Shown piece by piece: positions 18,201 through 42,719 of a DNA stretch of 58,741 bases. The stretch is from Chthoniobacteraceae bacterium (lineage in GTDB: Bacteria; Verrucomicrobiota; Verrucomicrobiia; Chthoniobacterales; Chthoniobacteraceae). Position numbers and translations under genes: made by a program. Numbering within the stretch: the stretch's first letter is position 1; each line of letters opens with the position of its first letter. The notes beneath the pieces were generated by a model. That model was not told the origin of the DNA. It made no database searches and saw nothing but the letters and a program-made list of their open reading frames with translations. The DNA is taken from positions 1 to 58,741 of the forward strand of contig CANIWM010000031.1 in assembly GCA_947471505.1 (NCBI GenBank), read 5' to 3'.

Positions 18201-21200
18201 AGCCGGTGCGGATGACTTGGTAGGCGTTGCTGACTGCGATGGAGTTGGGCGTCGTCGCGCCGGTGGTGCCGGGGGTGATGGAGACCCCGTTGCCCGCGTC
18301 CTTCCCGAGTAAAAGGGAACCGCTATCTGCCGCGAGCGAGCTGAGTGCGCGCACCTGCGCAAAGTCCGCCGCTGCGAGGTCTGCGCCTGCGGTGAAGCGG
18401 TAGGACCACGATTGCGCGTTGGCCGAGAGCGCCGTGTTTTGCGAGAGCAACGTGGCGTCCCACGCGGCGGTCTGGAAGCCGTCGCTGATGGTGTTGAAAA
18501 GACTGATATTGCCGAAGGCGCGGAGCGTCAGCACGCCGGGCGCGTGCTTGGTGCCGAAGCGGAACGTGGCCAAGTTCCAGTCGTTCGCGTAGGTGGAAGT
18601 GGTGGCATTGCCGAGCGTGAGATTGCCGGTGGTGCTCACGATTTCCGCGCCGGGCCGGATGCTGAGAACGGGGTCGAGCGCGGTGTTCGCACCGAGGACG
18701 CGAGCGAGCATGGTGCCGTAGGTCGCGCTAGCGGTGCCGTCTGCTCCGACGAATGTTTTGCCGTTGTTGGAAATCTGCGTCTGCGTGCCGATGGTGATGT
18801 TGCCGCCGTTCGGCGTGAAGACTTTGTAGCCCTCGACGATGATGGCGGATGCGCCGGTGATGGTGCCCGCAATCGGGGCGACGCTGAGGTCGGTGCTGGC
18901 GGCGTTTTGCGGTGCGCGGAGATGCAGGGTGCCGGTGAATCTGCCGTATGCCTCGCTGTCTGCGTCTGCGCTGGCGACGCCGAGGTCGATAGTCGCGCCG
19001 CTTTGAATGTCCACGACGCCCGCGTTGAGCCCGCGTGTTTCGAGGGAGATGCTGCCGCCTTTGCCAGCCGCGCTGAAATCCTGCCCAGACGCGTCGAGCG
19101 CGCCGGAGATGATGACGCTGCCTCCGCCGAGGAGCGCGATGTTGCCGCCGTGCTGGCCGGAGACATCCACGGTGCCGCTGATGGTGATGCTGCCGGTGTC
19201 GGTGGAAAGGCGGAAGTCGTTCACTTTCACCGTGCCGCCGATGGCGACATCGCCGGTGCGAATCCTGAAGCTCTGCGCTTCGCTGAAGCCGCCGGTGGCG
19301 AGGGAGACTTGCAGCGCGGTGAAGTCCGCGAGCATGCCTGCATCGAGGGTAAATGTCCCGCCGCGTCCGCCAGCGACCGCCTTTCCGACAAACTCTCCCG
19401 CGTTTGTGAATGAGCCTTTCGGCGCGCTGATGGTGAGCCTGCCTGCGTCCGCGCCGCCGGGCGCGGAGACGCTGATGACGCTGCCCGCATTGATATTCAC
19501 CGAGCCGTTGTCGGCGGTGAGGCGGACTTCGCCGCCGCCGGTGAAACGGGTGAGGTCGTAGAAGGTTTGCTCGGCTCCGCTAAGATTCACGCGCCCGGCG
19601 ATGCTCACATCGCCCGTGGTGGCGCGGACGGTGAGTAGGCCGCTGGGTAGGCTGATGTCGCTGCCGATGGATACGCTGCTGCCTTGGAGCGTGAGCGAGG
19701 CGCCGAGACCTCCTTGGACTGTGGCTGCTCCGGCGTCATCAATGCGAAGCTCCCCGCCCGCCGTGATGCCATGCACTGCGGAGCGCGCAGCGGTGATGAT
19801 GGGCGTCTCCGCGACGATGTTGCCTTGTGCGGAAAGCCCGCCGTTGCCTGTGGCGAGGATGCCGCCGGATGCGGAGAGATTGACCACCGCGTATTGGTTG
19901 ATGGAGAGCTGCCCTTTGCCGAGCGTGATGGTGCCCGCCTTTAGCTCTAGCGCGCCGCTGGTGGTGCCCGGTGCCGCTGCGAAGGTGGCCGCTGCCGAGT
20001 TATCTAAAATGAGTGCGCCAGCGGAGATCGTCGTCGTCCCGCCGTCGTTATTAAAGCCACGGATCGCTCGGGCGTGGAGCGTCAGCGTGCCTGCGATGTT
20101 GAAAGTGCCGGTGCCGTAAATGTCGAACGTGGAGTAGCTGAGGAGCGAGACAGAGCCCGATTTTTCCAAGCTGGCCAGCGCGGTGCCGCCGAGGATGAGG
20201 CCGTCCGTGGGGTTGAGCGCGCCGGGGTTTTCGAGCTGGATGCTGATCTGGCCGCTGTTGATCGCGATGACGCCGGCATCAAGGCGGGCGCTCGGATCGA
20301 GCGAGGTGCCGTAGGTGGAGTCGAGCGTCACATTCGCGCCCGCGATGTGCGCGCCTGCGCCGATAGTCATGCGCGGCTCGGTGGAGCCTCCGAGTCCGGT
20401 GCGCGTGGTGCGAGCGTCCGCATCGCTCGTCACGCGGATGAGCGTGCCGTCGCCCGTGAGCGCGAGTGTATCGCCACCCGCCTGTAGGGTGCCCGTTTGT
20501 AAAATCTCCGCGCCTGCCGTGAGCGTGAGCGCTTTGTTGGCGACGAGGATAATCTCAGGGCTGCTGAGCGGAGTGCCGCCGTTATCCACGGTGAGGTTGC
20601 CGGTTTTGACGGTAATGGTGGTGGAGTTCGGGCCGACTTTACGGATGCCGCCGATGAGGAGGCTCTCCGCGCCAAATGAGCTGAGTTGCGCTGCGTCGAG
20701 CGAGAGCTTGCCGGGGCCTGCGGTGCCGCCTTCGCCGGTGATGACGATGTCCGAAGGGCTGGCAATATCCACGAGGCCACCGCGACTGCCCGACGGCGCT
20801 CCGGCTGCGACGCGGCCATTCAGAATCATGGTGCTGCTTGCCTGGAGCGTGAGTTGTCCGGCGTCTCCCGGCAGCCGCGGGACTTTCGCTTCTAGCTGGA
20901 GCGCGCTGGTGCGGAGGAACTCGTTCCCCGTGTAGCTGACGTAGGCAGCGCGGTCGCTGAGAGCCTCGGGCGAGAGCACTTCGAACCACGAGAGCTGTGA
21001 GTTGAGCGTGCGCTCCGCGTTGAGCCCGTTGAAGCGAAAGCCGGGCACGAGCGTAGAGCCATCGGGCAGCTCCAGCGTGCCGATGGGCGTGCCACCTTTG
21101 AGCGAGACGAGCCGCGCACCGGGCAGCAGCGCGTAGCGGGCGGGGAGCAGCGTGTAGTTCCCCTCTTCGAGCCCGGCACCTGCGCCGAGGTGGATGCAGT

Positions 21201-24200
21201 CGCCGACGCGGAGCGCGGTATTGATGAGGCCGGGATCGCCCGTGAGCGCAGAGGCCGCGCTGTTCGGCGCATACGGGGAAAAGTGCGCGCCGTAGCCGGG
21301 CAGGATCGCGAAGCTCGTGGCGGAGGCCAGCAAGTCGCGCGAGCCGCCGGGGCCAGCGACCCAGCGGTAGGAGAGCAGATCGCCGCCGCCGCGAATGTCG
21401 AGCCGCGAGCCTGCTTTGCTGTCCACATTTGCGCCTGCGATATTGATCGCCTTTTGCGCTACGCCGCCGCCGGTGATGTCGGTGCCGGTGGGGTCCACCC
21501 ACGTCACGCCGTTGATATTGAGGCCGAAGGGGACGACCAAATCTTGCCCTTCAATCGGGCTGATCGCGGAGACGGAGGTGAAGGAATCTGCACCGAGTGT
21601 GATGTTCTTCGTCGCCGCCGCTTTGTCGCCGCTGAGTGCGCTGACGGGCGCATCGCCCTCGCCGTTCCAGCCGAGATTGATCGTGCCGAGCGGCACGCGC
21701 AGCGTTCCGTTTTGCACGATGCTGGAGGCGAAGACGTTCAGCGTCCCGCCCGCCGAGAGCGGTAGTGCGCGCACGCCGGACGCTTCGAAGGAGATGCTGC
21801 CCGAGCGCGTTTCGCTGCCCACTTTATAGTCTGCCGCGATGATGGTGAAAGTCGTCGCGCTCGGCGGATAGACCTGCGCGGCCCGCAGGGAAATGTGGCC
21901 TGCGGCTTCCAGCGTTCCGTTCCCACGGATGTCGCCGCCGTCGGCGATGAAGCGCGCGGTGTCTATGCTCTGGAGCGAGAGATTCCCAATATCTATGAGG
22001 TCCGCGATGACCGTCAGTTCGCCCGTGCCGTGGGTCGGCTTCACGCTGACGGGCTGCCCGGCCCCATCGAGGAATGGCGTGCGCGGCGCAGAGCCAAACG
22101 CCAGCGGCGCAAGGAACGGCTGCCCGAGTGTGATGTAAGGCGCCTTCAGCGTGACGGCGGCGTCTGCGTAGAGCACGCCTGCATCCGCGACCGAGAGCGT
22201 GCGCCGAGCGGCGATGCTCACCGGCCCGGCAAACTCGACCGTGCCCCGGAGCGTGAGTGAATCGAAGCCTCCGCGCGAAAATGTATCGGCTGCAAAATAG
22301 CCGTGGCTCGCCACTCCTTCGACGCCGAGCCCAATCGCCGAGCCGCCGAGTTTTGCGAAAGCTGCCGGTAGCGTCGGCCCGCTTTGCGTCACGCGCAGCG
22401 TCACATCCGTCGGTTTCTTCACCGTGCCGACGGGGAAGAAGCGGTCCGACGAAACCGTGAGCGTGCCGCCGAGCGCGGTAGGCCCGCCCGCTGCGCCGAG
22501 CAGCGTGGCATCCATGAACAGATGTTGCCCACCGGTGAGCGAAATATCGCCAGCGTCACTATCGAATCGGGTCGCGACATACTCCTGCGTATAAAGCGCG
22601 GAGTTCACGCCGCTGTTGAGCGGGACCACGGAGAGGCCGGTGACATTGCCGCCCATTTCTACAGTCGGCTTGAGCGTATCAATGATGCCGGAAGTACCCG
22701 ACACATCGAGCACAGCTCCGGTCTCCGCGACGATGTTGCCGCTGATGCTGATCTGCCCGCCGGGCAGCACAGAGCCGGTGCGGAAGCCGTAAAGATTCGG
22801 GGTGTAAAGGACGGTGCCGCGTGTGGAGAGCAACGCGTCCGGGCCAAGGTGGACGCTGGTGAGGCTCTTCGCGGATTCCAAGAATGCGCTGCTGAGATTC
22901 CGCGAGCCACTGATGCTGATCCGCCCGCCGGGAGCCACGACGCTGCCGAGCATGGACACCGTCTCCCCGGTGAACGACACGGTGCCGCGTGGGTCCGTCT
23001 CGATGTGTGCGCCCACGCCCACGACGATGTCGCCGCGAGTGACGAGGGCGTTGCCGTTTTGATCATCACGCAGCCCCGGCGCGTTAAACGCAAGGCTGAC
23101 GGGCGTGCGAAGACTTTGTGGGCCGAGGATGGGGCGCAGCTCCGCGCCTTCCAGCCCCGGCCCGTAAGGAACGGCGAGTGAATTGAGCGCGATAGGCTTG
23201 AGCTGCGTCCCTGCCGTGATGGCGACTGCTGGGATGAACTCTGTCGTGCTCCCCTTCACCGCCTCGCCGAGCCCCGTGAGCGCGAAACTCGTGAACCCGC
23301 CTTGGCTGAAAAACTCGGACTGGACGAGTAGCGTGTTGAGCGTCGCGCCGACCTCGCCGCCGACTTGGATGCTTGGCGCTTGGATGGCAAGCGAGCCGCC
23401 CTTCCCGCCAGAAAATGCGGACAGCTTCGCGTCGAGCGTGAGCGTGCCACCGAGGACTTGCGTGAGCCTCGGATCGTTGCCCGCTTTGATCGAAATGCCG
23501 CCGCCTGCGCCATACGTGCGCCGCCCGCTGCGGTCGAAAAGCACGCCGCCCGAGGCGTCCAGCGCGCTGCCTGCCGACAAGTCCACATTATATCCCGCGA
23601 TGGCGATGCTTCCGGCGTCCGCTGCGAGCGGTTGGCCGAGTGGGGCCTTCGCCAGCGGGCGATCATCCACGACGAGCCCCGCGACATTCAGACTGCCGCT
23701 GGGGCCGAGCGTGAAAGTCCCGCGCCCGAGATTCGGCGTGGTGTTGATCGGCGTTCCCGCAGGCGTCGTCTGGTCCGTGTAAGGCGTGATGTTATACGCG
23801 GTAAATGAGAGCGCGCCACCGGGCGCGGAGACCTTCCCCTGCACGTTGATATTCGAGCCCGTGAGGGTGAGCCCGCCGCGTGCGGGCACCTTCAACTCCA
23901 CGTCCTCGGGGACGCTCAGTTCGCCGTCGGAATTGATCACCGTGACGAAGCCAAACCCCGCGCTGGTGAAAAGCTCCGGCGACAAGAGCACTTGCGCGAG
24001 TCGCTCCACGCCGAGCGGCGCAGCGTGCCCAGCGGCATCCACGCGGAACTCTCCCGGCGCGGAGAGCTGTCCCGCTTGGAAGGTGATGTTTGCAGGCGTC
24101 GGCGAGAAGTCCGGGCTCGGGGTGCGGGCGCTGGTGCTGTCCTGTTTTTCAAACGTAAGCGCCAGCGTGCTCAGTCGCGGTGCAGCGAGTGCCGTGCGTT

Positions 24201-26520
24201 GCCGTGGCCCGGCGATGACTTGGCCGCGAAGGTCGCCATCCAGCGCCACACCGGCACTTTTGATCGTGATGGCTCCGCCCGCACTGCCCTCGACGTAGCC
24301 TGGCTCGAAGTGGTCGCCGCTCATGGAAAGCGGGTGCGCCCACGTCTGCGAGATGCCGTATTTCGGCAGCGTCTTGGTGAACGTGCCATCGTAGAGTCCG
24401 GTGAATGGCCGGTCTGGAAAAGCGTTCGCGATGTCCACCACGCGATTGTCCGAAATGACGCGCGTGGTCTGCACGACTCCGCCCTCGAAGTTCACGTAGC
24501 CGCCGGACACGTCGAGCTTTGCGCCGCTACGGACGACGACGGAATTGCCCGCTGTGATCGTGATATTCCCGCCCGCAGTCGTCAGCTCGCTCACGCTACG
24601 CTCGATGAGGTTTGCGTAGCCGCTGACTTCTCCCAGCGGCGTGCCGACCCACTCGCGCCCGGCAAATGTGCCACGCTGGCGGATGTCGAGGTTCAGCGTC
24701 GGCCCACGCAGCGGGCCTTTGCGCTGGAGGGGCGCGTCGGCCAACTCCGCGCCGCGAAGTTCCAGCGAGAGGATGTTTCGTGCGATGGGGACGGTGACAT
24801 CGGCGGTGCCAGCGACATTCAGCACCGCGCCGGTATCAATGTAGATTTGCCCCGTGCTGAAAACGAGTTGGCGGTCTTCTCCATTGGGCCGCCATTCGCC
24901 TGCGCGGAGGATCACGTCCGCATTTGGCGCGAGCAGTGTGGAGTTCGTGCCGAAGTGGATATTGCGCCCTTCCACTACGACCTTGGAGCGCAGCGCGAGC
25001 TGGGTGCCGATGACGGTTTTTGGGTCGAGGCTGTCGGGCAAAATTTGGTTCACCGCATCCGCACCGATAGTCGCCGTGCCGCTGCCTGTAGTCGCGAAAA
25101 ACGGCGAGCCACTGCCACTCGGGACGACGGTCACAGCGCCAAAATTCGCAAGGAGATTGATGCTCCCGTTTAGCGATACCGACGTGGCGCTGTTGATGAT
25201 GCCGAGCTGCCGGACATCCTTGCCCGCGAGAGTCGCATTCGCGCGCGGCGTATCGAGCAGCCCTGTATTGATCGCTGTGCCCGCTGGATTCTGCGCGGGG
25301 ATAATCGGTGGGTCTTGCGGCGTAGCGGGCGGAGGCACAGACACCGCACCTATGAACGTATCAAGGCCGCGAAGACGCGCATCATTGCTGGAGTGCGCGG
25401 CGAAGCCGACCTGCAAGCCAGCCGCGAGAACCGTCTGCCCATCCGGGGTGGAAATCGTCCCTGCGTTCGACACATTCGGACCAACGAGCATGATGCGCCC
25501 GCCCACGCCACTGCCGGTGGAAGGGCTGGTGAGCTGCGCGCCTTCCTGCACCACGACATCGCCATACTTTCCGCCCGGTGCATCGGAGGCCACCGGGGTG
25601 AAAGCAGCCGTGCCATTCTTTCCGGCGGAAAGCGGCAGTGCGGAGAAAAGGAACTGCGAATCCGGGTTATTCAGCAACCCGCGAGCGACGAGGCCGTCGT
25701 TGATCGGCAGCGACGAGGCGACGAGGCCGTGCAAATTGATCTGCGACGATCCACCAAAGAGGATGCCGTTCGCATTGATGACATACACCTGCCCATCGCC
25801 CTCGATCTTGCCGAGGATTTGCGAAGGTTTGCCGGAAGGGTCCTTGATTTTGTTAAACGCTGTCCACTGCGTCCGATCCTCGCCGCCCTTGGACTGGTCA
25901 AAGCGGAGCGTCGTCTTCTTCCCCACGTTGAAAGTTTCCCAATTCAAGACCGCCTGCGATTTCGTCTGCTGGATGGTGACGAACGATTCGCCACCCTTCT
26001 TCGTCTCCCGCGGGAGAAGCGCGCCTGTCCATAGCTTCACATCCTCGCCCGTCTGCGGGTTGGAGAGGTTCTTTGGCACACCTGCCGCCACTTGTAGTCC
26101 ACCGCGACCGAGGCCGTTCGTTACGTTTGCGAGATTTGCGCCGAGCCTATTTGGCCCCGCGATGGCGGCGGCGCGAGCGGTGTTCTGCATCGCCTTTACG
26201 GAGTTCAGGGCTTGTGTTGTGCGAGCCAGCGCGTCTTTCGCATTTTGGCGGGCAGCCTGTGCGGCTGGGGTGAGCGGTCCGCCTGTGCCATTGCCGCCAC
26301 CACCGCCCAGCGGAGTCCCTCCGCGAAGGATGTCGCCCGCCTCTGCCTGCGACACCGAAAGCATCGCCAGAGCAAGCCCCAGCGCCACCGGTAGCGACCT
26401 CGGAGCACGAAGAGCCTCGCGAAAACGAAGCGCTGGCCCCGACGGGACGGGGGCAATATACGGCGAGTGTGAGAAAGCAGGCTGCTGGCGCATGGTTGGT
26501 GGTCTTAGAAAGTCGGACAA
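15211..26520 (-). CDS. Giant filamentous haemagglutinin-like TpsA exoprotein
   Basis: A 3769-residue predicted secreted fibre. A long N-region precedes a hydrophobic signal core (about 43-57), with cleavage probably after AEA at 61; an alternative start is Met10. The TPS secretion domain lies about 160-290 and contains the NPNGI-type motif as NANGILFG (249-256) and INLHGLVAS. The following ~3000 residues are Gly/Ser/Thr/Ala-rich, with repeated patterns such as GGxISIxG and AGxxLDASGG expected of a right-handed beta-helix. Near the C-terminus a DUF3739-like segment ends in PGDVDLIAPGGAIDAGDAGIR, followed by a run of about ten Pro, a highly charged Lys/Glu/Arg/Asp stretch and GYGGGEGPSAR. It is last in an operon whose first gene is the TpsB transporter. 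Likely role: adhesion or surface fibre; no toxin domain is recognised. Confidence 0.92.
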   Translation of the reverse strand: MSDFLRPPTMRQQPAFSHSPYIAPVPSGPALRFREALRAPRSLPVALGLALAMLSVSQAEAGDILRGGTPLGGGGGNGTGGPLTPAAQAARQNAKDALARTTQALNSVKAMQNTARAAAIAGPNRLGANLANVTNGLGRGGLQVAAGVPKNLSNPQTGEDVKLWTGALLPRETKKGGESFVTIQQTKSQAVLNWETFNVGKKTTLRFDQSKGGEDRTQWTAFNKIKDPSGKPSQILGKIEGDGQVYVINANGILFGGSSQINLHGLVASSLPINDGLVARGLLNNPDSQFLFSALPLSAGKNGTAAFTPVASDAPGGKYGDVVVQEGAQLTSPSTGSGVGGRIMLVGPNVSNAGTISTPDGQTVLAAGLQVGFAAHSSNDARLRGLDTFIGAVSVPPPATPQDPPIIPAQNPAGTAINTGLLDTPRANATLAGKDVRQLGIINSATSVSLNGSINLLANFGAVTVVPSGSGSPFFATTGSGTATIGADAVNQILPDSLDPKTVIGTQLALRSKVVVEGRNIHFGTNSTLLAPNADVILRAGEWRPNGEDRQLVFSTGQIYIDTGAVLNVAGTADVTVPIARNILSLELRGAELADAPLQRKGPLRGPTLNLDIRQRGTFAGREWVGTPLGEVSGYANLIERSVSELTTAGGNITITAGNSVVVRSGAKLDVSGGYVNFEGGVVQTTRVISDNRVVDIANAFPDRPFTGLYDGTFTKTLPKYGISQTWAHPLSMSGDHFEPGYVEGSAGGAITIKSAGVALDGDLRGQVIAGPRQRTALAAPRLSTLALTFEKQDSTSARTPSPDFSPTPANITFQAGQLSAPGEFRVDAAGHAAPLGVERLAQVLLSPELFTSAGFGFVTVINSDGELSVPEDVELKVPARGGLTLTGSNINVQGKVSAPGGALSFTAYNITPYTDQTTPAGTPINTTPNLGRGTFTLGPSGSLNVAGLVVDDRPLAKAPLGQPLAADAGSIAIAGYNVDLSAGSALDASGGVLFDRSGRRTYGAGGGISIKAGNDPRLTQVLGGTLTLDAKLSAFSGGKGGSLAIQAPSIQVGGEVGATLNTLLVQSEFFSQGGFTSFALTGLGEAVKGSTTEFIPAVAITAGTQLKPIALNSLAVPYGPGLEGAELRPILGPQSLRTPVSLAFNAPGLRDDQNGNALVTRGDIVVGVGAHIETDPRGTVSFTGETVSMLGSVVAPGGRISISGSRNLSSAFLESAKSLTSVHLGPDALLSTRGTVLYTPNLYGFRTGSVLPGGQISISGNIVAETGAVLDVSGTSGIIDTLKPTVEMGGNVTGLSVVPLNSGVNSALYTQEYVATRFDSDAGDISLTGGQHLFMDATLLGAAGGPTALGGTLTVSSDRFFPVGTVKKPTDVTLRVTQSGPTLPAAFAKLGGSAIGLGVEGVASHGYFAADTFSRGGFDSLTLRGTVEFAGPVSIAARRTLSVADAGVLYADAAVTLKAPYITLGQPFLAPLAFGSAPRTPFLDGAGQPVSVKPTHGTGELTVIADLIDIGNLSLQSIDTARFIADGGDIRGNGTLEAAGHISLRAAQVYPPSATTFTIIAADYKVGSETRSGSISFEASGVRALPLSAGGTLNVFASSIVQNGTLRVPLGTINLGWNGEGDAPVSALSGDKAAATKNITLGADSFTSVSAISPIEGQDLVVPFGLNINGVTWVDPTGTDITGGGVAQKAINIAGANVDSKAGSRLDIRGGGDLLSYRWVAGPGGSRDLLASATSFAILPGYGAHFSPYAPNSAASALTGDPGLINTALRVGDCIHLGAGAGLEEGNYTLLPARYALLPGARLVSLKGGTPIGTLELPDGSTLVPGFRFNGLNAERTLNSQLSWFEVLSPEALSDRAAYVSYTGNEFLRTSALQLEAKVPRLPGDAGQLTLQASSTMILNGRVAAGAPSGSRGGLVDIASPSDIVITGEGGTAGPGKLSLDAAQLSSFGAESLLIGGIRKVGPNSTTITVKTGNLTVDNGGTPLSSPEIILVANKALTLTAGAEILQTGTLQAGGDTLALTGDGTLIRVTSDADARTTRTGLGGSTEPRMTIGAGAHIAGANVTLDSTYGTSLDPSARLDAGVIAINSGQISIQLENPGALNPTDGLILGGTALASLEKSGSVSLLSYSTFDIYGTGTFNIAGTLTLHARAIRGFNNDGGTTTISAGALILDNSAAATFAAAPGTTSGALELKAGTITLGKGQLSINQYAVVNLSASGGILATGNGGLSAQGNIVAETPIITAARSAVHGITAGGELRIDDAGAATVQGGLGASLTLQGSSVSIGSDISLPSGLLTVRATTGDVSIAGRVNLSGAEQTFYDLTRFTGGGEVRLTADNGSVNINAGSVISVSAPGGADAGRLTISAPKGSFTNAGEFVGKAVAGGRGGTFTLDAGMLADFTALQVSLATGGFSEAQSFRIRTGDVAIGGTVKVNDFRLSTDTGSITISGTVDVSGQHGGNIALLGGGSVIISGALDASGQDFSAAGKGGSISLETRGLNAGVVDIQSGATIDLGVASADADSEAYGRFTGTLHLRAPQNAASTDLSVAPIAGTITGASAIIVEGYKVFTPNGGNITIGTQTQISNNGKTFVGADGTASATYGTMLARVLGANTALDPVLSIRPGAEIVSTTGNLTLGNATTSTYANDWNLATFRFGTKHAPGVLTLRAFGNISLFNTISDGFQTAAWDATLLSQNTALSANAQSWSYRFTAGADLAAADFAQVRALSSLAADSGSLLLGKDAGNGVSITPGTTGATTPNSIAVSNAYQVIRTGSGDISIAAARDVQLRNQYASIFTVGTKLQDASTLPNGGAFDVPEPMISGSQGTLVASNLGVDGRGGVTATAQYTVAGGNVSVTAQNDIVHNTKLGGVVSADSTRQMPTSWLYRRGNVDALTGEFATSLTGTSVDSTTWWVDFSNFFEGVGALGGGNVSLIAGRDVANVDGVIPTNARMAKGAPDAANLVELGGGDLTVRAGRNIDGGVYYVERGHGALDAGGEITTNRTRTPSLGIITDNFAPEQTWLPTTFFLGKGSIAVNARGNVLMGPVANPFLLPAGYYNSIRYKSYFSTYAAESAVSVTSLGGGVTLRLEATPVSLQSEESEPILMTWYRKHMQFGKDASVYSTANYQPWLALNETNTAAFKTAFNLMPATLRASAFSGDINVIGKLTLAPSAKGTLELLANGAVNGLNIAGRNTVEGTPTNLWVTGSVVLSDASPTSVPGAAAPLGFLATVPAGTNPVTTGTAFYNSFNALFAENGALTNALDTKQALHAPGLLHAGDADPLRIYAGTGDIQGLSVFSPKAANIFAGRDISDIGLYIQNLADEDVSIVAAGRDIIAYNANTASRVTASSAGNAITSSSAPRAGDLQISGPGTLEVLAGRNLDLGIGKSNADRTGLGLVSVGNARNTNLPFAGADLVVGAGIGPATGLGTGALDFKTFVADILAAPAATRYAEELATIIGGSGAVTDFESLPEKQQHLAALQIFFLMLRDAGRDHNDPASPDFGTYAGGFKAIDTLFPGTNWKGDISLTSRQIKTAAGGDISIFAPGGKIIVGFDAGAGQSLDQGILTESGGNIHIFANDSVTLGTSRIFTLRGGNEIIWSTTGDIAAGSSSKTVASAPPTRVSIDPQSADLKNDLAGLATGGGIGVLATVAGLMPGDVDLIAPGGAIDAGDAGIRSAGNLNVAATTLLNSENISVTGATAGAPSAPPPPPPPPPPTTVTPTDNKPQTSGQTEKEREREKDKDKERIVEEAASIFNIEVLGYGGGEGPSAR

Positions 26521-26567: not shown

Positions 26568-27254
26568 TTACGGTTTGGAGACAGCGGGCTTTTTCTCCGT
26601 CGGCTTTGCGTCGCTGGGCTTTGGGGAGGTGCCGTCGAGGCGGATGCGTTGGTCGGCTGCTGCACTGCCGAGTTCTTCCACCATGGTCTCTAATCGTGCA
26701 CGGGTGACGCCGACGAAGGGCTCGCGGGCGGTGAGTGCTTTGCCGAGGCCGAACTTGCTGTAGCGGTCGAGAAGCTCGGTGGTGATTTCGTACATCTTCG
26801 CGTTCTTCACGCGCTGGCTGGCGACGGTGCGCTTGAGGCTCTCCGCCTCGCCAGCGAGCTTGGCGCGTTCAGCTTCGGTCTTCTTTCCGAACTCGTCTGC
26901 CTTTTTGCCGAATTCGTCGGCTTTGACTTTGAGGGCCATTTCTTCCGCGAGCTGCTTCTCCTTGGTGGCGAGGTCGGCTTTGAGGGCTTCGAGTTCTTTG
27001 GTCGCAGTTTCCTTCTCGGCGGCGCGGGCTTTTGCGTCTTCCTCGGCCTGCTTTTGGAATGCCTTCACTTTCTCCTCTAGCGCGGCCTTTTCTACTGCCA
27101 GTGCGGCTTGGGCGGCTTCGGCGGTGCGAGCTTGGGTCATCAAAGATTTGATCTGTTCGCGCAGTCGAGATTCGGGCGATGGTCCTGCGGGAGGTTCGGC
27201 GAAAAGTGTGGCAGCGCTGAGGAGCGCGGTGGTGAAAATCGTGAGTCGTTTCAT
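26568..27254 (-). CDS. Periplasmic coiled-coil protein
   Basis: A 228-residue protein with a signal peptide (MKRLTIFTTALLSAATLFA, cleavage before EPP). Residues about 30-155 are almost pure charged heptad helix (Ala/Glu/Lys-rich, with KADEFGKK repeated in tandem), then a short globular end (KMYEITTELLDRYSKFGLGKALTAREPFVGVTRARLE) and a Lys/Pro tail. The start at 27254 is set by the signal peptide and lies two bases after the porin stop, which indicates one transcript. Function unknown; position between porin and TpsA suggests a periplasmic spacer or chaperone for the secretion cluster. Confidence 0.8.
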   Translation of the reverse strand: MKRLTIFTTALLSAATLFAEPPAGPSPESRLREQIKSLMTQARTAEAAQAALAVEKAALEEKVKAFQKQAEEDAKARAAEKETATKELEALKADLATKEKQLAEEMALKVKADEFGKKADEFGKKTEAERAKLAGEAESLKRTVASQRVKNAKMYEITTELLDRYSKFGLGKALTAREPFVGVTRARLETMVEELGSAAADQRIRLDGTSPKPSDAKPTEKKPAVSKP

Positions 27255-27256
27255 GG

Positions 27257-29212
27257 CTAGAATTTTCCGTTGAAGTCGAGTTGAAGGGTGTCGTTTTTGT
27301 TGGGTGGTCCCGCGATTTGCGTGGCGCTCACCCATTTGATCCCGAAGGTGGCTTTTGGAGTGATGGCGATGACGCCGGAGAGGCCGAAGCCTTTCATATT
27401 CGTGCCGCCGAGGCCGAAGTCGGAGTCGGTGAAGCCGTCAATAACGGCGTCGGATTCGATGTGCTTGTAGTAGCCGCCAAGCTGCCAGTCGCCGCGCTTC
27501 GCCAGGGCGGGTGCGCCTGCGCGGAGGCCGAGCATCCATGCGGTGTCGCCGCCTGCGTAATGGCCCGGCGTGCCTGCGACGCTCTGCGGAGCGCGGGTGT
27601 TGATGCCGAGCGCGTCGAGTCGGTCGCGGTCGAAGCCGAGGTTGCGGATGTATTCGCCGAGGATGGAGACTTGGAACGGCTCGAAGCCGTTGTAGTCGAG
27701 TCGCCCAGTGATGGCGATGGGCTGGAACTCGGTGCCGAGGCCGAAGTATTGAAACTGGTTCGTAGTGCCGAAGTTGTTGTTCGCATTGGGGATGATGCGG
27801 CGGAGCGGGATGTAAGTGTTTCCTTTCTGCGCAAAAGAGGGGCGGGTGCCGTCAGTATCGCCCGCATCGGCGGTGGTGAGCGGGGTGAAGGGCGTGGACT
27901 GTTCGCCGCGCGTGCCGTCGAAGTAGTAGTAAGCGGCGGCGAGCTTGAGGTCCAATTTCTCGGCGAGCTTCACGTCGCTGCCGAGCTGGATGCCGTAGAG
28001 GTATTTGTCGCTGCTGCGGAACTTGGAGGGCTGGTTGCTGCTGAAGTTGAAGTCCGTATTGAAGATTGGGAACGCGCCGACGGTGAGGAATGGTGTGGCT
28101 TTGGAGAGCTTGTGCTTGAGCTGCATGGCGAAGCCGTCGAAGCCAAGGTCTTCGTCGAATATAATGTCGGTGGAGAAGAACGGATTGTCCGTGCGCCCGC
28201 CCATCGCGGTGAAGTGTGTCTTTTCGCCGATCGACTCGTATTTGAGGAAAGCGCGGTCAATCCAGATGGCGTATTTACTGAACTGCCCGCCGGTCGCGCC
28301 GAGCGATTGGTTGGGCGAAGTGGGCGAGTTGCTTTCGCCGCTGGCGAGGCGGAGGCCTGCGGTGAAGCCGTCGCCCATATCTACTTCCGCACCGAGCCTC
28401 ATGCGAAGGCGAAAGCGCTGGCGGTCCTGATCCACATTGAGCTGCGGGGAGAAGGTGGTGCCCGCGACATCGAACGGGGAGCCGGTGTTGAGGCTGTTGA
28501 AATTCGGGAATGCACCGGTGTTGTCGTTTCCGCTCGGGAAGTAGTTGCCTTCGTAGCGAAGGCGCACGTCGCCCTTCACACGGAACTTGGTGACCCAGTC
28601 GGGAATCTTGGTGTTGTTCACGTAGCCGTCCGTCTTTGCCTGCGCAGCAATGTCGGCGCGCAGTTCGTCGCGGATTTGTTTTTTGACGATCTCGGGGATG
28701 TACGTGACGCGCACGGCGTCGTCTGGCGCGGGGCCGACCTCGGGGATGATGCGGGCATCGACGGCCTCTTTTACGACTTGCACGGCAGTGGTCTGCGCGT
28801 CGGCCTGTGCTTGGATGCGCGCGGTCGCGGCGTCGGATTGTGCCTGTTTGATGAGGTCTTCAGCTTCCTCTTTTTCGAGAAGCCCTTTTTTCACCATACG
28901 ACGGATCAGGTTGATGGTGACGTTGTCGGACGGTGCCATCAAATCCGCTGGGCCAGTAGCCGCTGGCGGCGCTTCGGCTGGCGGCGGCGGGGCGGCTTGC
29001 TCGGCAGGCTTCGCGTCGTCCTTCGCTGCTTCGACGGGTTTTCCCTCAGCGCGGAACTCGGGCTTGGCCGCATCTGCCGGAGCGGCTTGGGCGATGAGCG
29101 GGCCTTGCGGGAGTGGCAGCTTGAGCGGGGAGCCCGCGTTGGCCGTGGCACAGAGAGACGAAGCGAGCACGAGCGCCAAGTGCGCGCGTGGTGTGGTATT
29201 TTCGAGTGACAT
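27257..29212 (-). CDS. Putative outer-membrane porin
   Basis: A 651-residue protein: signal peptide about 1-26, a Pro/Ala/Glu-rich periplasmic linker (about 30-92), a helical segment (about 97-150) with LIRRMVKKGLLEKEEAEDLI, then a beta-barrel from about residue 195 with alternating strands (VRLRYEGNYF, RQRFRLRMRLGAEVDM, TAGLRLASGES) ending in a C-terminal Phe (LDFNGKF), as expected for BAM substrates. The pattern matches the putative-porin family found in Verrucomicrobia and some Deltaproteobacteria. The helical part may trimerise or reach toward peptidoglycan. It is the sixth gene of the TPS-Ton operon and may be the outer-membrane channel served by the Ton motor. Confidence 0.88.
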   Translation of the reverse strand: MSLENTTPRAHLALVLASSLCATANAGSPLKLPLPQGPLIAQAAPADAAKPEFRAEGKPVEAAKDDAKPAEQAAPPPPAEAPPAATGPADLMAPSDNVTINLIRRMVKKGLLEKEEAEDLIKQAQSDAATARIQAQADAQTTAVQVVKEAVDARIIPEVGPAPDDAVRVTYIPEIVKKQIRDELRADIAAQAKTDGYVNNTKIPDWVTKFRVKGDVRLRYEGNYFPSGNDNTGAFPNFNSLNTGSPFDVAGTTFSPQLNVDQDRQRFRLRMRLGAEVDMGDGFTAGLRLASGESNSPTSPNQSLGATGGQFSKYAIWIDRAFLKYESIGEKTHFTAMGGRTDNPFFSTDIIFDEDLGFDGFAMQLKHKLSKATPFLTVGAFPIFNTDFNFSSNQPSKFRSSDKYLYGIQLGSDVKLAEKLDLKLAAAYYYFDGTRGEQSTPFTPLTTADAGDTDGTRPSFAQKGNTYIPLRRIIPNANNNFGTTNQFQYFGLGTEFQPIAITGRLDYNGFEPFQVSILGEYIRNLGFDRDRLDALGINTRAPQSVAGTPGHYAGGDTAWMLGLRAGAPALAKRGDWQLGGYYKHIESDAVIDGFTDSDFGLGGTNMKGFGLSGVIAITPKATFGIKWVSATQIAGPPNKNDTLQLDFNGKF

Positions 29213-29235: not shown

Positions 29236-29942
<707 letters not shown>

Positions 29943-29946
<4 letters not shown>

Positions 29947-30347
29947 TTGCCTCCTCCTTTGGTTGCGATGCCTACGTTCAAAATACCTGCTGCGCCGATG
30001 GCGTTCAGCGCATCCATGACGCCCTGATATTGCGCAACGGCGTCGCCTTTTACCACGACGGGGATGCCGGGATTCTCCGCGCGGGCTTTCACCAAGCGGG
30101 ACTCCAGTTGCGCCAGCGTCACGGGCTCGGTGTTTAGGAAAATCTTCCCTTCGTTATTGATGGTGACGGCTTTCACTTTCTTATCCGCAAGGCTCTTGGT
30201 CGCTGGGCCGCCGCCGGGGAGATTCACCTTCAGACCTTGTACCGAAGCCGTACACATGAGGATGAAGATGACGAGGAGCACGTAGGCGAGGTCGAGCATC
30301 GGGGTGATGTTGATGTCGTCGTAAGGTTTGTCGTCTTGGATTTGCAT
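29943..30347 (-). CDS. exbD: ExbD/TolR-family biopolymer transport protein, copy 2
   Basis: A 134-residue protein with one membrane helix (about 17-37) preceded by INITPMLDLAYVLL, carrying the conserved Asp of the proton path (D19), and a periplasmic domain with VVVKGDAVAQYQGVMDALNAIGAAGI. Strongly similar to the ExbD encoded just upstream (30355-30756): the first 45 residues are nearly identical. It overlaps the TonB-like gene by four bases. Works with ExbB and TonB to use proton-motive force. Confidence 0.94.
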
Positions 30348-30354
30348 GGCGGGT

Positions 30355-30756
30355 TTAGCGGGTGATGGTGGCGAGGCCGACTTGCGCGATTTCGAGTTTG
30401 CCGATGACGTTGAGCACTTCGACGACGCTGGCGTAGCGGCTCACGCTTTCGCCTTTGACGACGACCTGGACTTTAGGGTTTTCGACCTTCGCCTGCGCGA
30501 GCCGCGCTTCGAGCTGCGGGAGGGTGACGGCTTCGCGGTTGAGCCAGATTTTGTTCTGCGCATCCACTTGGATGGATTGGATTTTGTTCTCCTTTTGCTT
30601 CTTCGCCGGGGCGTTGCTGCCGCGAGGCAGGCTGGCCTTCAGCCCCTGCACCGTCGCGGTACACATGAGGATGAAGATCACGAGGAGCACGTAGGCGAGA
30701 TCGAGCATCGGGGTGATGTTGATTTCGTCGTAAGGTTTATCGTCTTGGACTTGCAT
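30355..30756 (-). CDS. exbD: ExbD/TolR-family biopolymer transport protein, copy 1
   Basis: A 133-residue protein with the same layout as its downstream neighbour: INITPMLDLAYVLLVIFILM (helix with D19), then a periplasmic ExbD domain (VVVKGESVSRYASVVEVLNVIGKLEI). It has an inserted basic stretch APAKKQKENK. The two exbD genes are separated by seven bases and clearly arose by tandem duplication. Two distinct ExbD proteins could form a heterodimer within the ExbB pentamer. Confidence 0.94.
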   Translation of the reverse strand: MQVQDDKPYDEINITPMLDLAYVLLVIFILMCTATVQGLKASLPRGSNAPAKKQKENKIQSIQVDAQNKIWLNREAVTLPQLEARLAQAKVENPKVQVVVKGESVSRYASVVEVLNVIGKLEIAQVGLATITR

Positions 30757-30839: not shown

Positions 30840-32684
30840 TCACTCATTGCTGTTCTTCTCTTTGTAAAACTCGGCCATTTTCGTGACGAACTCATCGATG
30901 AAGATGTGCATGTCGTCCTTCGCATCCTTCACGCGGGAGAGGATGTAGTTGTAGCCGAAGAGCGCGGGGATCGCGACGGCGAGACCGGCCACCGTGGCGA
31001 GGAGCGCGGCGGCGATGCCGGGGGCGATGGCGTTCACGTTCACCTCTCCTGCCGCAGCCACGCCCGCGAACGTCGTCATGACGCCCACGACGGTGCCGAG
31101 CAGCCCAAGGAATGGGCCGCCCGAGATGCAGATGGTGAGGAGCACGACGAGGCTGCTGATTTTTTGCGTTTCGCGGACGAGCCCGCCGTCGAGTGCGGCG
31201 CGGATGGCTTGGATGGAGCGACCTGCGAGGCCGCGGCGGACGCCTTGATCGCGGTCGGACTTCATGCGGTGGCGGATTTCTTCCACGCCGATGTGGTAGA
31301 TTCGATAGACCGACGATTTACGAAGGGGCTTCACGTTCTCTTTCGTCACGCGACCGCCGAGGGTCTTGGACTGCTCTACGTCCTCATCGTCAAGCATCGT
31401 GAGGTCGGAGGCGACGTTCCGCCATTGCTTCATGAAAATCTCATTCCCCTTCGCGACGCCGTTGAGGTAGCGCACTTTGCTAAACATCACGTACCAACTG
31501 ATGACGAACATCACCGCTAGAATGACGATGACGATCCAGCCGTCCACGGTGAGGTTTTTCACGATGATGGCGAAATCGCCCGTCTTCAGCCAACTCAGCC
31601 AATCCTTGCGAATCTCTAGGTCGCCGAGCTTCACGAAGTTCTGCGCTTTGTCGCCGCTCTGCCCGTTTGCCGCGAACAGCACCCAGCCTGCGGGGCGCGC
31701 GACTTTGTGCATCTGCAGCTCGTCGATCTCGCCGGTGATTCCCACCGCACCGGGCTGCGTATCGCCGCTGATGGTGATGACGCTGTTCATCCCCGGCATC
31801 CCCACGCCGAGCGCGGTGGCTTGCTCGCCGTTGATGTAGAGCGTGGTCTTCGCGCCTTCGCATACGACGGCGACGTGCGCCCATGTGTTCGCGGTAAATT
31901 GTTGGTTCTTCGCCTCGGCGCGCTGCCCGCCGATTTCGATGTAGGGCGTCACTCCATTCGCGCCGAGCACGAACGACTTGGTGCCTTCGCGGCGGCTGAG
32001 AATGATGGCGTCGGGCTTGCCGATGGCGACTTTCACCCAAGCCGAAATCGTCAGAGGGCCGTTGTCTGTCCACAAAATCGAAGGCGTCGGCGTGATGGGC
32101 ACGGCGTCTTTGCCGTTAAAGGAAGCGCCGCCGCCGATGAACGAGCCTCCCGATGGCGTCGGCGGCAACTCTCCTGCGTTATTGTTCTTTGTCGAATCGC
32201 TCGGATTGCCGGACTCGCTGAAATGGAAGACGAGCGTCGCGTCGCTGTCGTAGCTGCCCTTCATGTCTTCGGCTCGCGTGGCCTTTTGGTCGAGCGAGAT
32301 GAAATACATCCAAAACACGGTCTTCGCGTTCGGTTTCACGTCTGGGAGTTTCACCCACACGAGCGCCTCCATGAGCGTGAGATCGAGCTTCTCGACGTGG
32401 AACGGTAGCACGGTTTTATCATCCTCTGCGACGAAGCGCAGGTCGCTCAAATCCTCCTTCGCGCCCGTCGGCCAATTGCCCTCAAATAAGCGCAGCAGAA
32501 CCGTTGCTCCGCCGATGGGCTCCGTCACATTCCCCGCCGCGGCGGTGGTGTCTATGGTGATCTGTTTGCGAGTCGTCCACGTCTCGTTCCACCACGTTTG
32601 CTTTTCGGCAAAAGCGGACGCGCAAAGCGTGAGAAGTGCGATGAGTAGTTTAGGGAAGAGGGTCTTCGTTCGTAGGATAGCCAT
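30840..32684 (-). CDS. DUF2341-LamG-ExbB fusion, proton channel
   Basis: A 614-residue membrane protein. A signal peptide (about 1-26, ASAFA-EK) is followed by a DUF2341-like domain (about 30-135, WWNETWTTRKQITID to TVFWMYF) and a LamG/concanavalin-like domain (about 150-335, TISAWVKVA, TWAHVAVV, TLYINGEQ, GEIDELQMHKVARP). Then come membrane helix 1 (about 382-401), a cytoplasmic loop, and the MotA/TolQ/ExbB domain with helices about 511-540 and 553-580 (GGPFLGLLGTVVGVMTTF, GIAAALLATVAGLAVAIPA). The N-terminal ~350 residues are therefore periplasmic, an unusual sensor-like addition to ExbB. The start at 32684 is set by the signal peptide; the frame runs further upstream into the tpsB gene. 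It is 14 bases after tpsB and upstream of the two exbD genes. Confidence 0.92.
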   Translation of the reverse strand: MAILRTKTLFPKLLIALLTLCASAFAEKQTWWNETWTTRKQITIDTTAAAGNVTEPIGGATVLLRLFEGNWPTGAKEDLSDLRFVAEDDKTVLPFHVEKLDLTLMEALVWVKLPDVKPNAKTVFWMYFISLDQKATRAEDMKGSYDSDATLVFHFSESGNPSDSTKNNNAGELPPTPSGGSFIGGGASFNGKDAVPITPTPSILWTDNGPLTISAWVKVAIGKPDAIILSRREGTKSFVLGANGVTPYIEIGGQRAEAKNQQFTANTWAHVAVVCEGAKTTLYINGEQATALGVGMPGMNSVITISGDTQPGAVGITGEIDELQMHKVARPAGWVLFAANGQSGDKAQNFVKLGDLEIRKDWLSWLKTGDFAIIVKNLTVDGWIVIVILAVMFVISWYVMFSKVRYLNGVAKGNEIFMKQWRNVASDLTMLDDEDVEQSKTLGGRVTKENVKPLRKSSVYRIYHIGVEEIRHRMKSDRDQGVRRGLAGRSIQAIRAALDGGLVRETQKISSLVVLLTICISGGPFLGLLGTVVGVMTTFAGVAAAGEVNVNAIAPGIAAALLATVAGLAVAIPALFGYNYILSRVKDAKDDMHIFIDEFVTKMAEFYKEKNSNE

Positions 32685-32698
32685 GAGTATTGAGAGTC

Positions 32699-34423
32699 TT
32701 AAAAGTCGGACCAAAGCCGGAAGTTCACGCGTGTTTCGTGGGCTTTGGTATTGGTGGATTGCACGCCTGGCGTCGGCGTGTACGGGATGGAGGTGAGCGG
32801 CAGCGCCAGCTCCAAGATGCCGTGCAAGTGGTCCCACAAATGCAGCTCCGAGCCGAGCCCCACGCTGGCGATGCGGTAGCTGGAGATTTGCTCCGGCAGT
32901 GCCTTTTGCAAAGTCACCGAGCCGCCGTCCATGAAGCCGTAGAAGCGCCACTCGTTGCCGGTGGATTCCTCTTTCGCCGCATCGCCTTCGCCCACCATTT
33001 TCTTCGTCTTCAGTAGCGATGGCGAGCGCAGTTCCAGCGTGCCGAGCAACGCATTGTCGCCGAGCGCTTCGGACTCGTAGTAGCCCCGCACCGTGGACAT
33101 GCCGCCTGCGGAGAATTGCTCGTATGCGATGAGCGGCGAATCCGTCGCCTGCCCCTGCACCCGCGCCACGAGTTCCCAATCGCGCCCCAGCTTACGCTCA
33201 TGCTCCAAGCTGCCACGGAGGTAGGCGAACGAGCCATCCGAGCCCGCGCGACTATTATTAAATGCGGCTTCGTCGCTGCCCAGTCCGCGTGGCCCGAAGG
33301 TCAGCCCGACGTTCATCGAAGTGGAGCCCGTCTCCTCGCTCGTGCCGTCCTCTTCTCGCGAATGCAGCCACGTCCCATCCCAAGTCGCACTGATCGGATA
33401 ATACCGCACATCCCCGATGGCAAATGCGCCGCCTGCGAGATTGTTGGAATCGAACGCCTTGTAGTCGAAGCCCAGCGAGAGCGACTGGAAAAATCCCACC
33501 GCCGACGGCAGCTCAAACATCGCCCGGACGCCGAGTGTGAAGCCCGGTGCAAGCACTCCGCCCTCGCCGGATGGCGACGCCAGCGCCGCCGGGGAAATCG
33601 TGTGGCTGTGCTGCTTCGAGCCCGTGAACATGAGGCTGAAGCTGTCCCACTCCGGCTCGCGCCAGATGTAGAAGCCGTTCAGCACGCGAATCTCGTCCAT
33701 GTTCTGCGGCGACACTTGATAGCTCGCGCCGAGCGTGTGCCCGCGCTGCCAGAGGTTCGCGTAGCTCAGGGAGACGTTCAGCCGTAAGTCTGTCGTATTG
33801 ATGCTGGCGCGATTGTTCAGCTCCGCGCTCCCGTGCAGCGGGTTCGTGTCCTTCACTTGCAGCTCGATGTCGTAAAAGCCCGGCTCTAGCGAGGGCGTGA
33901 GCTTCGGTTCCACGCGACGGTCGGCGAGCTTGTTCAGCTTCACGATTTCCGGGCTGATGTTGTTGAAATTGATCACGCTCCCCGGTGCCAGCGATTGCGC
34001 CTGCGCGCGGATGCGGCTGGGGAGAAAATACTTCGCGCCCGTGATTTTCAGAGAGCCCACCTTGCCCTCGGCGGCTTGCAGCGTCACCACTCCGCCACGC
34101 CCATCTTGCTCAGGGATGAGGACTTGCGCCGCTTTGTAGCCCTTTTCGTGATAGGCCTTCGTCAGCGCATTCGCCGCGTCTTGCACATCCTTGAAAGTGC
34201 GCCCCGGCCCGAGGAATGGATACACGGTTTCCTCCACGTCAATCTTCGGCAGCTCCTTCGTCCCCAACACGCGAATCTCGCGGATGTAAAGCGTCGGCGG
34301 AGCCTGCTCTGGCACTTGTTCCAGCGGGGCAACCTCTACGGGGCGCCGAGTTTCCGCGCACGCCGCTCCCGCAGCCAGCGAGCAGGCGATCAATCGGATT
34401 GCAGCGTTAGAAAATGAGTTCAT
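32699..34423 (-). CDS. TpsB outer-membrane transporter (ShlB/FhaC/HecB family)
   Basis: A 574-residue protein: signal peptide about 1-23 (GAACA-ET), a Pro-rich link, POTRA-type domain about 45-120 (LYIREIRVLGTKELPKIDVEETVYPFLGPGRTF...KAYHEKGYKAAQVLIPEQ), a second POTRA-like part about 121-200, then a 16-strand-type barrel to the C-terminal Phe (FRLWSDF). FSAGGMSTVRGYYE is the conserved L6-type VRGY tip motif of Omp85/TpsB proteins. It secretes TpsA proteins across the outer membrane; the only TpsA candidate in the window is the last gene of the same operon. It is the first gene of the operon, with a terminator-like hairpin upstream. Confidence 0.94.
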   Translation of the reverse strand: MNSFSNAAIRLIACSLAAGAACAETRRPVEVAPLEQVPEQAPPTLYIREIRVLGTKELPKIDVEETVYPFLGPGRTFKDVQDAANALTKAYHEKGYKAAQVLIPEQDGRGGVVTLQAAEGKVGSLKITGAKYFLPSRIRAQAQSLAPGSVINFNNISPEIVKLNKLADRRVEPKLTPSLEPGFYDIELQVKDTNPLHGSAELNNRASINTTDLRLNVSLSYANLWQRGHTLGASYQVSPQNMDEIRVLNGFYIWREPEWDSFSLMFTGSKQHSHTISPAALASPSGEGGVLAPGFTLGVRAMFELPSAVGFFQSLSLGFDYKAFDSNNLAGGAFAIGDVRYYPISATWDGTWLHSREEDGTSEETGSTSMNVGLTFGPRGLGSDEAAFNNSRAGSDGSFAYLRGSLEHERKLGRDWELVARVQGQATDSPLIAYEQFSAGGMSTVRGYYESEALGDNALLGTLELRSPSLLKTKKMVGEGDAAKEESTGNEWRFYGFMDGGSVTLQKALPEQISSYRIASVGLGSELHLWDHLHGILELALPLTSIPYTPTPGVQSTNTKAHETRVNFRLWSDF

Positions 34424-34485: not shown

Positions 34486-34542
34486 GAAACCAAACGACCG
34501 CCGACTCAAACGGATTCGAGTAGGCGGGTTGTTTGGTTTCTT
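34486..34542 (-). terminator. Strong hairpin after the Calx-beta gene
   Basis: Arms of about 23 bases (34486-34507 and 34519-34542) pair almost perfectly around an 11-base loop; the hairpin begins at the stop codon of the minus-strand Calx-beta gene, and the 3' arm on that strand ends in TTTGGTTTCT. This fits a factor-independent terminator that would separate the Calx-beta transcript from the TPS operon starting at 34423, though there is no long T-run. Confidence 0.65.
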
Positions 34543-37429: not shown

Positions 37430-37613
37430 GGAATTTTTGCGTTGTCGGTTTAGTCGTAAGAGAACTTCCCTGTTTTCCTCCAATGATGGGGAAACGACAA
37501 GTTACACACTGTGACGTGTGAGTGCCGAAAATAAGACAGAGCCTTGCTTTCGGAACATATCCGCTTCGGGAATGTGACGTGCCCTAAGTTCGAGAGCTTG
37601 CTATTTCTTGCCT

Positions 37614-42705: not shown

Positions 42706-42713
42706 GACACGTC

Positions 42714-42719
42714 CCTCCC
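42714..42719 (-). promoter_or_regulatory. Shine-Dalgarno site that fixes the response regulator start
   Basis: GGGAGG on the minus strand, eight bases before GTG 42705. It is one of the few clear Shine-Dalgarno sites in the window; many neighbours lack one. Confidence 0.7.

What the first reader, a model, noticed from the sequence alone, without database searches (positions are those of the whole stretch)
30840..32684. ExbB proton channel carrying a periplasmic DUF2341-LamG head
About 350 residues with a signal peptide, DUF2341-like and LamG-like folds precede the first membrane helix of an otherwise normal MotA/TolQ/ExbB domain. A lectin-like head could gate the motor by binding glycan, peptidoglycan or the TpsA chain in the periplasm.
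Basis: partly seen in the sequence, partly recalled or inferred. Interest (0 to 1): 0.65.

Follow-up and report, generated by a model that had tools for sequence, protein, structure and literature searches.

The report
Lectin-headed ExbB motor of TPS locus
This gene encodes a proton-driven inner-membrane motor protein (ExbB) that really does carry a large lectin-like head outside the membrane; the architecture is already known and widespread, but the survey shows it is always tied to one class of giant secreted protein, a link worth testing because that kind of secretion is thought to need no energy.

Summary
Window 30840-32684(-) encodes 614 aa: signal peptide, DUF2341, a ConA/LamG jelly roll, a flexible hinge and a TolQ/ExbB channel. 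All three Pfam domains pass their cut-offs, the AlphaFold model is confident (pLDDT 89.6), and 86 of 89 orthologs start with a signal peptide followed by 'WW'.

The fusion is not new. It occurs in Verrucomicrobiota, Proteobacteria and Myxococcota, and a 2025 paper names DUF2341 as an N-terminal appendage of ExbB/TolQ-type subunits.

What the survey adds is its context. The gene belongs to a conserved module (TpsB, head-ExbB, ExbD, TonB, Porin_5, coiled-coil protein, giant TpsA). Gene order matches the P. aeruginosa PUMA3/Pdt locus, whose TonB system is called 'still uncharacterized'. The head-ExbB occurs essentially only with DUF3739-class TpsA: 8/288 versus 9/288 Verrucomicrobiota genomes and 23/200 versus 23/200 Burkholderiales, and every mismatch sits at a contig end. 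Those TpsA proteins end in a conserved motif, PSxx(T/S)VEVLG(Y/F)G, absent from TpsA-like giants of TPS loci that lack a head-ExbB.

Best explanation (inference, about 0.4): the head couples a dedicated proton-driven TonB motor to the TpsA C-terminus or its outer-membrane partners. Glycan gating is untested.

The parts
30840..32684 (-). Head-ExbB: DUF2341-LamG-MotA/TolQ/ExbB fusion protein, 614 aa
32607..32684 (-). Signal peptide, residues 1-26 (CASAFA|EKQTWW); the cleavage site is inferred from the pattern and from orthologs that are cut just before WW
32250..32594 (-). DUF2341 domain with N-terminal extension, residues 31-145; six-stranded beta fold; WW..W..RK invariant or nearly so
31659..32249 (-). 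LamG/ConA-like jelly roll, residues 146-342
30858..31592 (-). TolQ/ExbB-type proton channel, residues 365-609; channel Thr T531 and T564 invariant
30355..30756 (-). ExbD/TolR family protein 1 (133 aa)
   Evidence: ExbD 7.8e-23
29943..30347 (-). ExbD/TolR family protein 2 (134 aa); the Asp of the ExbD membrane helix is kept (MLDLAYVLL)
   Evidence: (3.3e-25)
29236..29946 (-). TonB-like energy transducer: one membrane helix, proline-rich spacer, weak TonB C-terminal domain (below curated cut-offs)
27257..29212 (-). Porin_5 outer-membrane barrel with conserved periplasmic N-terminus
   Evidence: (4.2e-191)
26568..27254 (-). Periplasmic coiled-coil protein with signal peptide (likely ATG at 27254), by gene order counterpart of PA0697
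15211..26520 (-). Giant TpsA exoprotein, 3769 aa, DUF3739 class
   Evidence: DUF3739 2.4e-26
15415..15747 (-). DUF3739 domain of TpsA (residues 3592-3702)
15235..15270 (-). Conserved C-terminal TpsA motif SIFNIEVLGYGG (residues 3751-3762)
32699..34423 (-). TpsB transporter (ShlB-type POTRA plus barrel), 14 bases upstream of head-ExbB

Best explanation
The gene is the A subunit of a dedicated ExbB-ExbD-TonB motor that works together with a two-partner secretion system whose substrate is a giant DUF3739-class TpsA. Shown or directly supported: signal-peptide export of the N-terminus, a DUF2341+LamG head outside the inner membrane on a TolQ/ExbB-type channel with intact channel threonines, a conserved operon, and near-perfect genomic coupling to DUF3739 TpsA. 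Inferred: five heads form a collar around the pentameric channel and recognise a periplasmic part of the secretion machinery. The most likely target is the C-terminal tail of TpsA (motif PSxx(T/S)VEVLG(Y/F)G), which should be the last part to leave the periplasm; TpsB POTRA domains or the Porin_5 N-terminus are alternatives. The proton-driven motor then acts through TonB on that assembly, for example to complete, anchor or release the exported fibre.
For: Core neighbours in 65 loci with room downstream: ExbD 65, TonB 65, Porin_5 64, coiled-coil protein 64. TpsB lies directly upstream in 55 of 77, and in nearly all the rest a giant TpsA-like ORF does. Among 288 Verrucomicrobiota genomes, head-ExbB is in 8 and DUF3739 in the same 8 plus 1 (Fisher p 8e-15; 1e-8 within TpsB-positive genomes, using 53 TpsB genomes), although TpsB of any kind is in 53. 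Among 200 Burkholderiales: 22 both, 1 each alone, 176 neither (p 5e-27). All exceptions sit at contig ends. All 20 head-ExbB genomes or records tested have DUF3739 TpsA, including ones with no TPS gene next door. The TpsA C-terminal motif is found in 33 of 44 tails with a strict pattern and by eye in nearly all others; 0 of 1397 other ORFs and none of the large ORFs beside 13 other TPS transporters have it. It stands out sharply from variable flanks. In P. aeruginosa the same gene order is one transcription unit downstream of pdtB (PMC4971064; PMC7035377).
Against: No physical interaction is shown. TPS translocation has been reconstituted without energy input (PMC5422565), so a motor is not needed for translocation as such. 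Single transposon mutants of tpsA, tpsB, the TonB homologue and PA0696 in P. aeruginosa had no effect on VreI-induced lethality in zebrafish (PMC2729926). Co-occurrence is equally compatible with the motor serving Porin_5. The TonB C-terminal domain scores below curated cut-offs. The Glu of the third channel helix of E. coli ExbB (E176) is Ala/Gly/Ser here, so ion coupling may differ.
Confidence: 0.4

Rival explanations
1. Import model: TpsA is a surface capture fibre and the TonB motor energises Porin_5 (not TpsB) to take up a scarce nutrient, with the LamG head sensing or relaying the glycan or ligand in the periplasm.
For: Porin_5 is as constant as TonB itself (64 of 65). TpsA plus a TonB-dependent uptake protein is a known pairing (HxuA/HxuC, PMC5422565). 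In P. aeruginosa the locus is induced by phosphate starvation (PMC4971064, PMC7035377).
Against: Porin_5 is not a plug-containing TonB-dependent transporter by Pfam. The strict link to one TpsA class and the conserved TpsA tail motif are not explained. PdtA/PdtB is reported as a functional TPS system with a virulence phenotype, not an uptake phenotype (PMC7035377).
Confidence: 0.25
2. One reading: the head is a lectin that gates the proton channel when it binds periplasmic glycan or peptidoglycan.
For: The LamG part is closest to a carbohydrate-binding domain of an arabinanase (Z 24.6).
Against: The jelly-roll fold is shared by many protein-binding domains (one search lists neurexin, laminin and others). 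The invariant residues are mostly structural W/G/D/R spread over DUF2341 and LamG. Peptidoglycan is present in most Gram-negative bacteria, yet the head occurs only with DUF3739 TpsA.
Confidence: 0.15
3. The head is a passive spacer or assembly scaffold that positions TonB/ExbD or the coiled-coil protein and has no ligand of its own.
For: A low-confidence hinge separates head and channel. LamG sequence is less conserved than DUF2341.
Against: The DUF2341 part is as conserved as the first membrane helix, more than a mere spacer needs.
Confidence: 0.15
4. Annotation artefact: the true start lies before the ExbB helix and the upstream frame is spurious.
For: None found.
Against: Full-length conservation including the signal peptide over several phyla.
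Confidence: 0.01

Closest known systems
P. aeruginosa PUMA3/Pdt locus (pdtA, pdtB, exbB2-exbD2-tonB4, PA0696-PA0699)
   Same: Matching genes in matching order: TpsB, ExbB, ExbD, TonB, porin, unknown, YbjN, PpiC PPIase (PMC2729926, PMC7035377). Pseudomonas loci fetched here show it with a head-ExbB.
   Different: The window has two ExbD genes, no YbjN or PPIase in the operon and TpsA as last gene; no ECF sigma/FecR/VreA genes were seen next to it. The sequence of PA0693 itself was not examined here.
ExbB/TolQ (A subunits of TonB and Tol-Pal motors)
   Same: Channel fold (Z 19.7 to TolQ), invariant threonines T531 and T564, ExbD partners, TonB-like partner.
   Different: An about 320-residue periplasmic head; scores below the TolQ and ExbB equivalog cut-offs; TM3 Glu replaced by Ala.
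Generic ion transporter A subunits with N-terminal appendages (DUF2341, DUF3450) of the 2025 stator study
   Same: The same appendage, DUF2341, is named there as unexplained (PMC12505986).
   Different: That study does not mention LamG or concanavalin and, in the passages read, does not link the domain to TPS or DUF3739.
Bordetella FhaB/FhaC two-partner secretion
   Same: Giant exoprotein, ShlB-type TpsB, a C-terminal region that matters after translocation (FhaB ECT, PMC8263021).
   Different: No dedicated ExbB/ExbD/TonB/Porin_5 module is described; FhaB retention relies on a prodomain and proteases.
AbnA domain 4 (carbohydrate-binding module of a GH43 arabinanase)
   Same: Same jelly-roll fold as residues 147-341.
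   Different: About 19% identity over the aligned part; secreted enzyme; ligand residues not shown to be shared.

Membership tests
MotA/TolQ/ExbB proton channel family (PF01618) | Pfam match above gathering score | tested here: met
   90.4 bits against 22.9
MotA/TolQ/ExbB proton channel family (PF01618) | TolQ/ExbB channel fold | tested here: met
   TolQ 8vlw_A Z 19.7, rmsd 2.4, 220 residues
MotA/TolQ/ExbB proton channel family (PF01618) | Channel threonines equivalent to E. coli ExbB T148 and T181 | tested here: met
   T531 and T564 invariant in 48 orthologs
Canonical ExbB or TolQ equivalogs (TIGR02797, TIGR02796) | Score above the curated cut-off | tested here: not met
   ExbB 63.9 against 206.2; TolQ 125.2 against 221
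Canonical ExbB or TolQ equivalogs (TIGR02797, TIGR02796) | Glu in TM3 (E. coli ExbB E176) | tested here: not met
   A/G/S in all 48 orthologs aligned
DUF2341 (PF10102) | Pfam match above gathering score | tested here: met
   44.9 bits against 23.4
Laminin_G_3 / ConA-like superfamily (PF13385) | Pfam match and jelly-roll fold | tested here: met
   58.9 bits against 27.6; Z 24.6 to AbnA domain 4
Lectins | Binds carbohydrate | not testable with these tools
   Needs a binding assay
TonB family (operon gene 29236-29946) | TonB C-terminal domain above curated cut-off | tested here: not met
   TonB_2 19.1 against 22; TIGR01352 25.3 against 27.1. Position, membrane helix and proline-rich spacer are TonB-like, so this lowers 'is a TonB', not 'works like one'
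PUMA3/Pdt-type TPS module | Gene order TpsB, ExbB, ExbD, TonB, Porin_5, coiled-coil protein | tested here: met
   gene table in PMC7035377
PUMA3/Pdt-type TPS module | VreAIR-like regulators nearby | tested here: inconclusive
   Profile search found no STN, ECF or FecR hit in window 14001-45000; the rest of the window was checked by Pfam for most large ORFs only. A response regulator lies at 42016-42846
Two-partner secretion (type Vb) | ShlB/FhaC-type TpsB with POTRA_2 and a giant TpsA | tested here: met
   POTRA_2 59.2 and ShlB 52.5 bits; TpsA 3769 aa with DUF3739

The most novel reading that the evidence does not exclude
A pmf-driven two-partner secretion variant: the conserved C-terminal TpsA motif (T-V-E-V-L-G-F/Y-G, which resembles a TonB box, T-hydrophobic-x-V-x-small) is grasped in the periplasm by the head-ExbB/TonB motor, so that export, anchoring or release of the giant fibre is powered by the inner membrane, unlike known type V secretion, which is regarded as energy-independent.
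Probability: 0.25. Interest if true: 0.8.

Novelty: new member of a known kind. Interest (0 to 1): 0.48.

Why it matters
The protein belongs to a widespread but uncharacterised family. The survey adds that this motor and one class of giant TPS exoprotein travel together almost without exception across two phyla, and that those exoproteins share a C-terminal tag found in none of the control ORFs. If the two act together, type V secretion, described as having no hydrolysable or electrochemical energy source, would have a variant served by the proton-motive force, and the use of the unexplained TonB system in the P. aeruginosa Pdt locus would become directly testable.

Tried and rejected
Start-site artefact: rejected. 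Longer TTG start at 33179: rejected, it overlaps TpsB and adds no conserved sequence. General TPS association: rejected as too broad; 53 of 288 Verrucomicrobiota have an ShlB-type TpsB but only 8 have head-ExbB. DUF2341 profile alone as a marker: rejected, because 124 of 288 genomes match the head profile at E<=1e-10 through unrelated DUF2341/LamG proteins, so a gap in score (E<=1e-76 against >=8e-47) was used instead. Fold of DUF2341 alone: no clear PDB match (best Z 6.0 to alpha-mannosidase, Foldseek E >= 0.06), so no function was read from it. Rfam and tRNA scans of the window: nothing. Literature: DUF3739 occurs in no paper of the held library, DUF2341 together with ExbB in two papers, one of them relevant. 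The TM3 Glu loss as a hallmark of the family was considered and dropped: one other ExbB-like paralogue of this genome lacks it too.

Full report
OBSERVATION. The frame 30840-32684(-) encodes 614 aa. Pfam finds DUF2341, Laminin_G_3 and MotA_ExbB, all above gathering score. The start is right: 86 of 89 orthologous frames have a hydrophobic N-terminus directly followed by WW, and the head is as conserved as other constrained parts of the protein. An AF2 model from 48 orthologs (mean pLDDT 89.6, pTM 0.66) shows a beta-rich head to about residue 342, a low-confidence hinge near 361-370 and the first membrane helix from 380. The LamG part matches AbnA domain 4 (Z 24.6) and the channel matches TolQ (Z 19.7). 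DUF2341 folded alone (pLDDT 89.3) is a six-stranded beta fold with no clear PDB match.

CHANNEL. E. coli ExbB T148 and T181 align with T531 and T564, invariant in 48 orthologs; E176 aligns with A559, which is A, G or S in all 48 (the alignment is, the E. coli residue roles are from general knowledge). The window's ExbD keeps the membrane Asp. The genome has seven MotA/ExbB-family genes and two DUF2341 hits, of which only this one lies in an ExbB frame, so this is an extra, specialised motor.

NEIGHBOURHOOD. On the minus strand the order is TpsB, head-ExbB, ExbD, ExbD, TonB, Porin_5, coiled-coil protein, TpsA, with gaps of at most 83 bases (coordinates; families). Full-length orthologs at 34-56% identity lie on plasmids and in 80 genome loci of Verrucomicrobiota, Alpha-, Beta- and Gammaproteobacteria and Myxococcota. 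Where at least 6.5 kb downstream was available, ExbD and TonB are present in 65 of 65 and Porin_5 and the coiled-coil protein in 64 of 65. TpsB is directly upstream in 55 of 77; in nearly all loci without a TpsB hit a giant ORF, in many of them DUF3739-positive, lies directly upstream. Several loci also hold YbjN, a PPIase and STN/ECF/FecR regulators. The Verrucomicrobiota copies form one clade (97/99) next to a mainly alphaproteobacterial group, compatible with old transfer between phyla.

PHYLOGENETIC PROFILE. To avoid bias from picking loci by neighbours, I searched whole genomes. In 288 Verrucomicrobiota, head-ExbB (E <= 1e-95; next hit 8e-47 in a 1848-aa frame) is in 8 genomes, DUF3739 TpsA in 9 including those 8, and ShlB-type TpsB in 53. 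Fisher p is 8e-15 overall and 1e-8 inside the TpsB-positive set. In 200 Burkholderiales the counts are 22 both, 1 and 1 alone, 176 neither (p 5e-27); one further head-profile hit at 8e-44 is a 1381-aa frame and was not counted. The exceptions are contig ends: both G215 TpsA frames run off the contig start, the G439 TpsA ends 178 bases from a contig end, and the G357 contig is 3482 bases long. All 20 head-ExbB genomes or records tested, including those with no TPS gene adjacent, have DUF3739 TpsA. Genomes in these samples share ancestry, so the p-values are descriptive; the same coupling in two phyla is the stronger point.

TPSA TAIL. DUF3739 is followed by a variable linker and then a sharply conserved motif, PS-phi-phi-(T/S)-V-(E/D/Q)-V-(L/I)-G-(F/Y)-G, often followed by acidic residues. 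A strict pattern finds it in 33 of 44 tails, a looser one in 6 more, and most of the rest carry it by eye (for example PSIIIVEVLGFGG); L089 is degenerate. It is absent from the last 130 residues of 1397 other ORFs and from the large ORFs beside 13 other ShlB-type transporters. The pattern was derived from this set, so the 33/44 rate is by construction; the zero in controls and the contrast with the flanks are the informative parts.

LITERATURE. The P. aeruginosa PUMA3/Pdt locus has matching genes in matching order; its TonB system is 'still uncharacterized', PA0696 is a putative porin and PA0697 is of unknown function (PMC7035377). phdA, pdtB, exbB2D2, tonB4 and PA0696-PA0701 share one promoter (PMC4971064). 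The association of TPS with exbBD was noted in 2009 (PMC2729926). DUF2341 as an appendage of ExbB-like subunits was noted in 2025 (PMC12505986). Type V translocation is described as having no hydrolysable or electrochemical energy source (PMC5422565). No paper in the held library mentions DUF3739; subscription papers, including Faure et al. on Pdt, could not be read.

MECHANISM. Shown: domain content, export signal, fold of the LamG part and the channel (predicted models), operon, genomic coupling, tail motif. Inferred: head-to-tail or head-to-transporter contact and motor action on the TPS machinery (about 0.4). The motif's likeness to a TonB box is a visual resemblance, not a test. The main rival is a motor that energises Porin_5 for uptake (about 0.25).

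VERDICT. Interest comes from the strict TpsA coupling and the tail motif rather than from the fusion itself.

Noticed in passing
window 15235-15270 (-), and TpsA tails in L004-L091 and L130-L138: Conserved C-terminal short motif PSxx(T/S)VEVLG(Y/F)G on DUF3739-class TpsA proteins, after a variable linker; beta- and gammaproteobacterial tails carry a second VQVLGAG-like motif near the end.
   Followed up: partly
own genome G000:C64:26632-27573: A second DUF2341+LamG protein (1067-aa frame) without an ExbB domain.
   Followed up: no
window 34541-37483 (-): A 980-aa protein with three Calx-beta repeats directly upstream of TpsB in the same orientation; not part of the conserved module.
   Followed up: no
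window residue A559 of P0001 (about 31010 on the + strand): The membrane Glu of ExbB TM3 (E. coli E176) is replaced by A/G/S in the whole family while both channel threonines stay; another ExbB-like paralogue of this genome (L092) also lacks it.
   Followed up: partly
L004 and L011 (Klebsiella plasmids): The module sits on Klebsiella plasmids (L004 conjugative, L011 typed non-mobilizable), with arsenic resistance genes close by on L004.
   Followed up: no
L131/L154 and L138/L155 (genome G215): Two TpsA genes of one genome begin at contig ends with identical N-terminal coding sequence, so a repeated TpsA start probably broke the assembly.
   Followed up: partly
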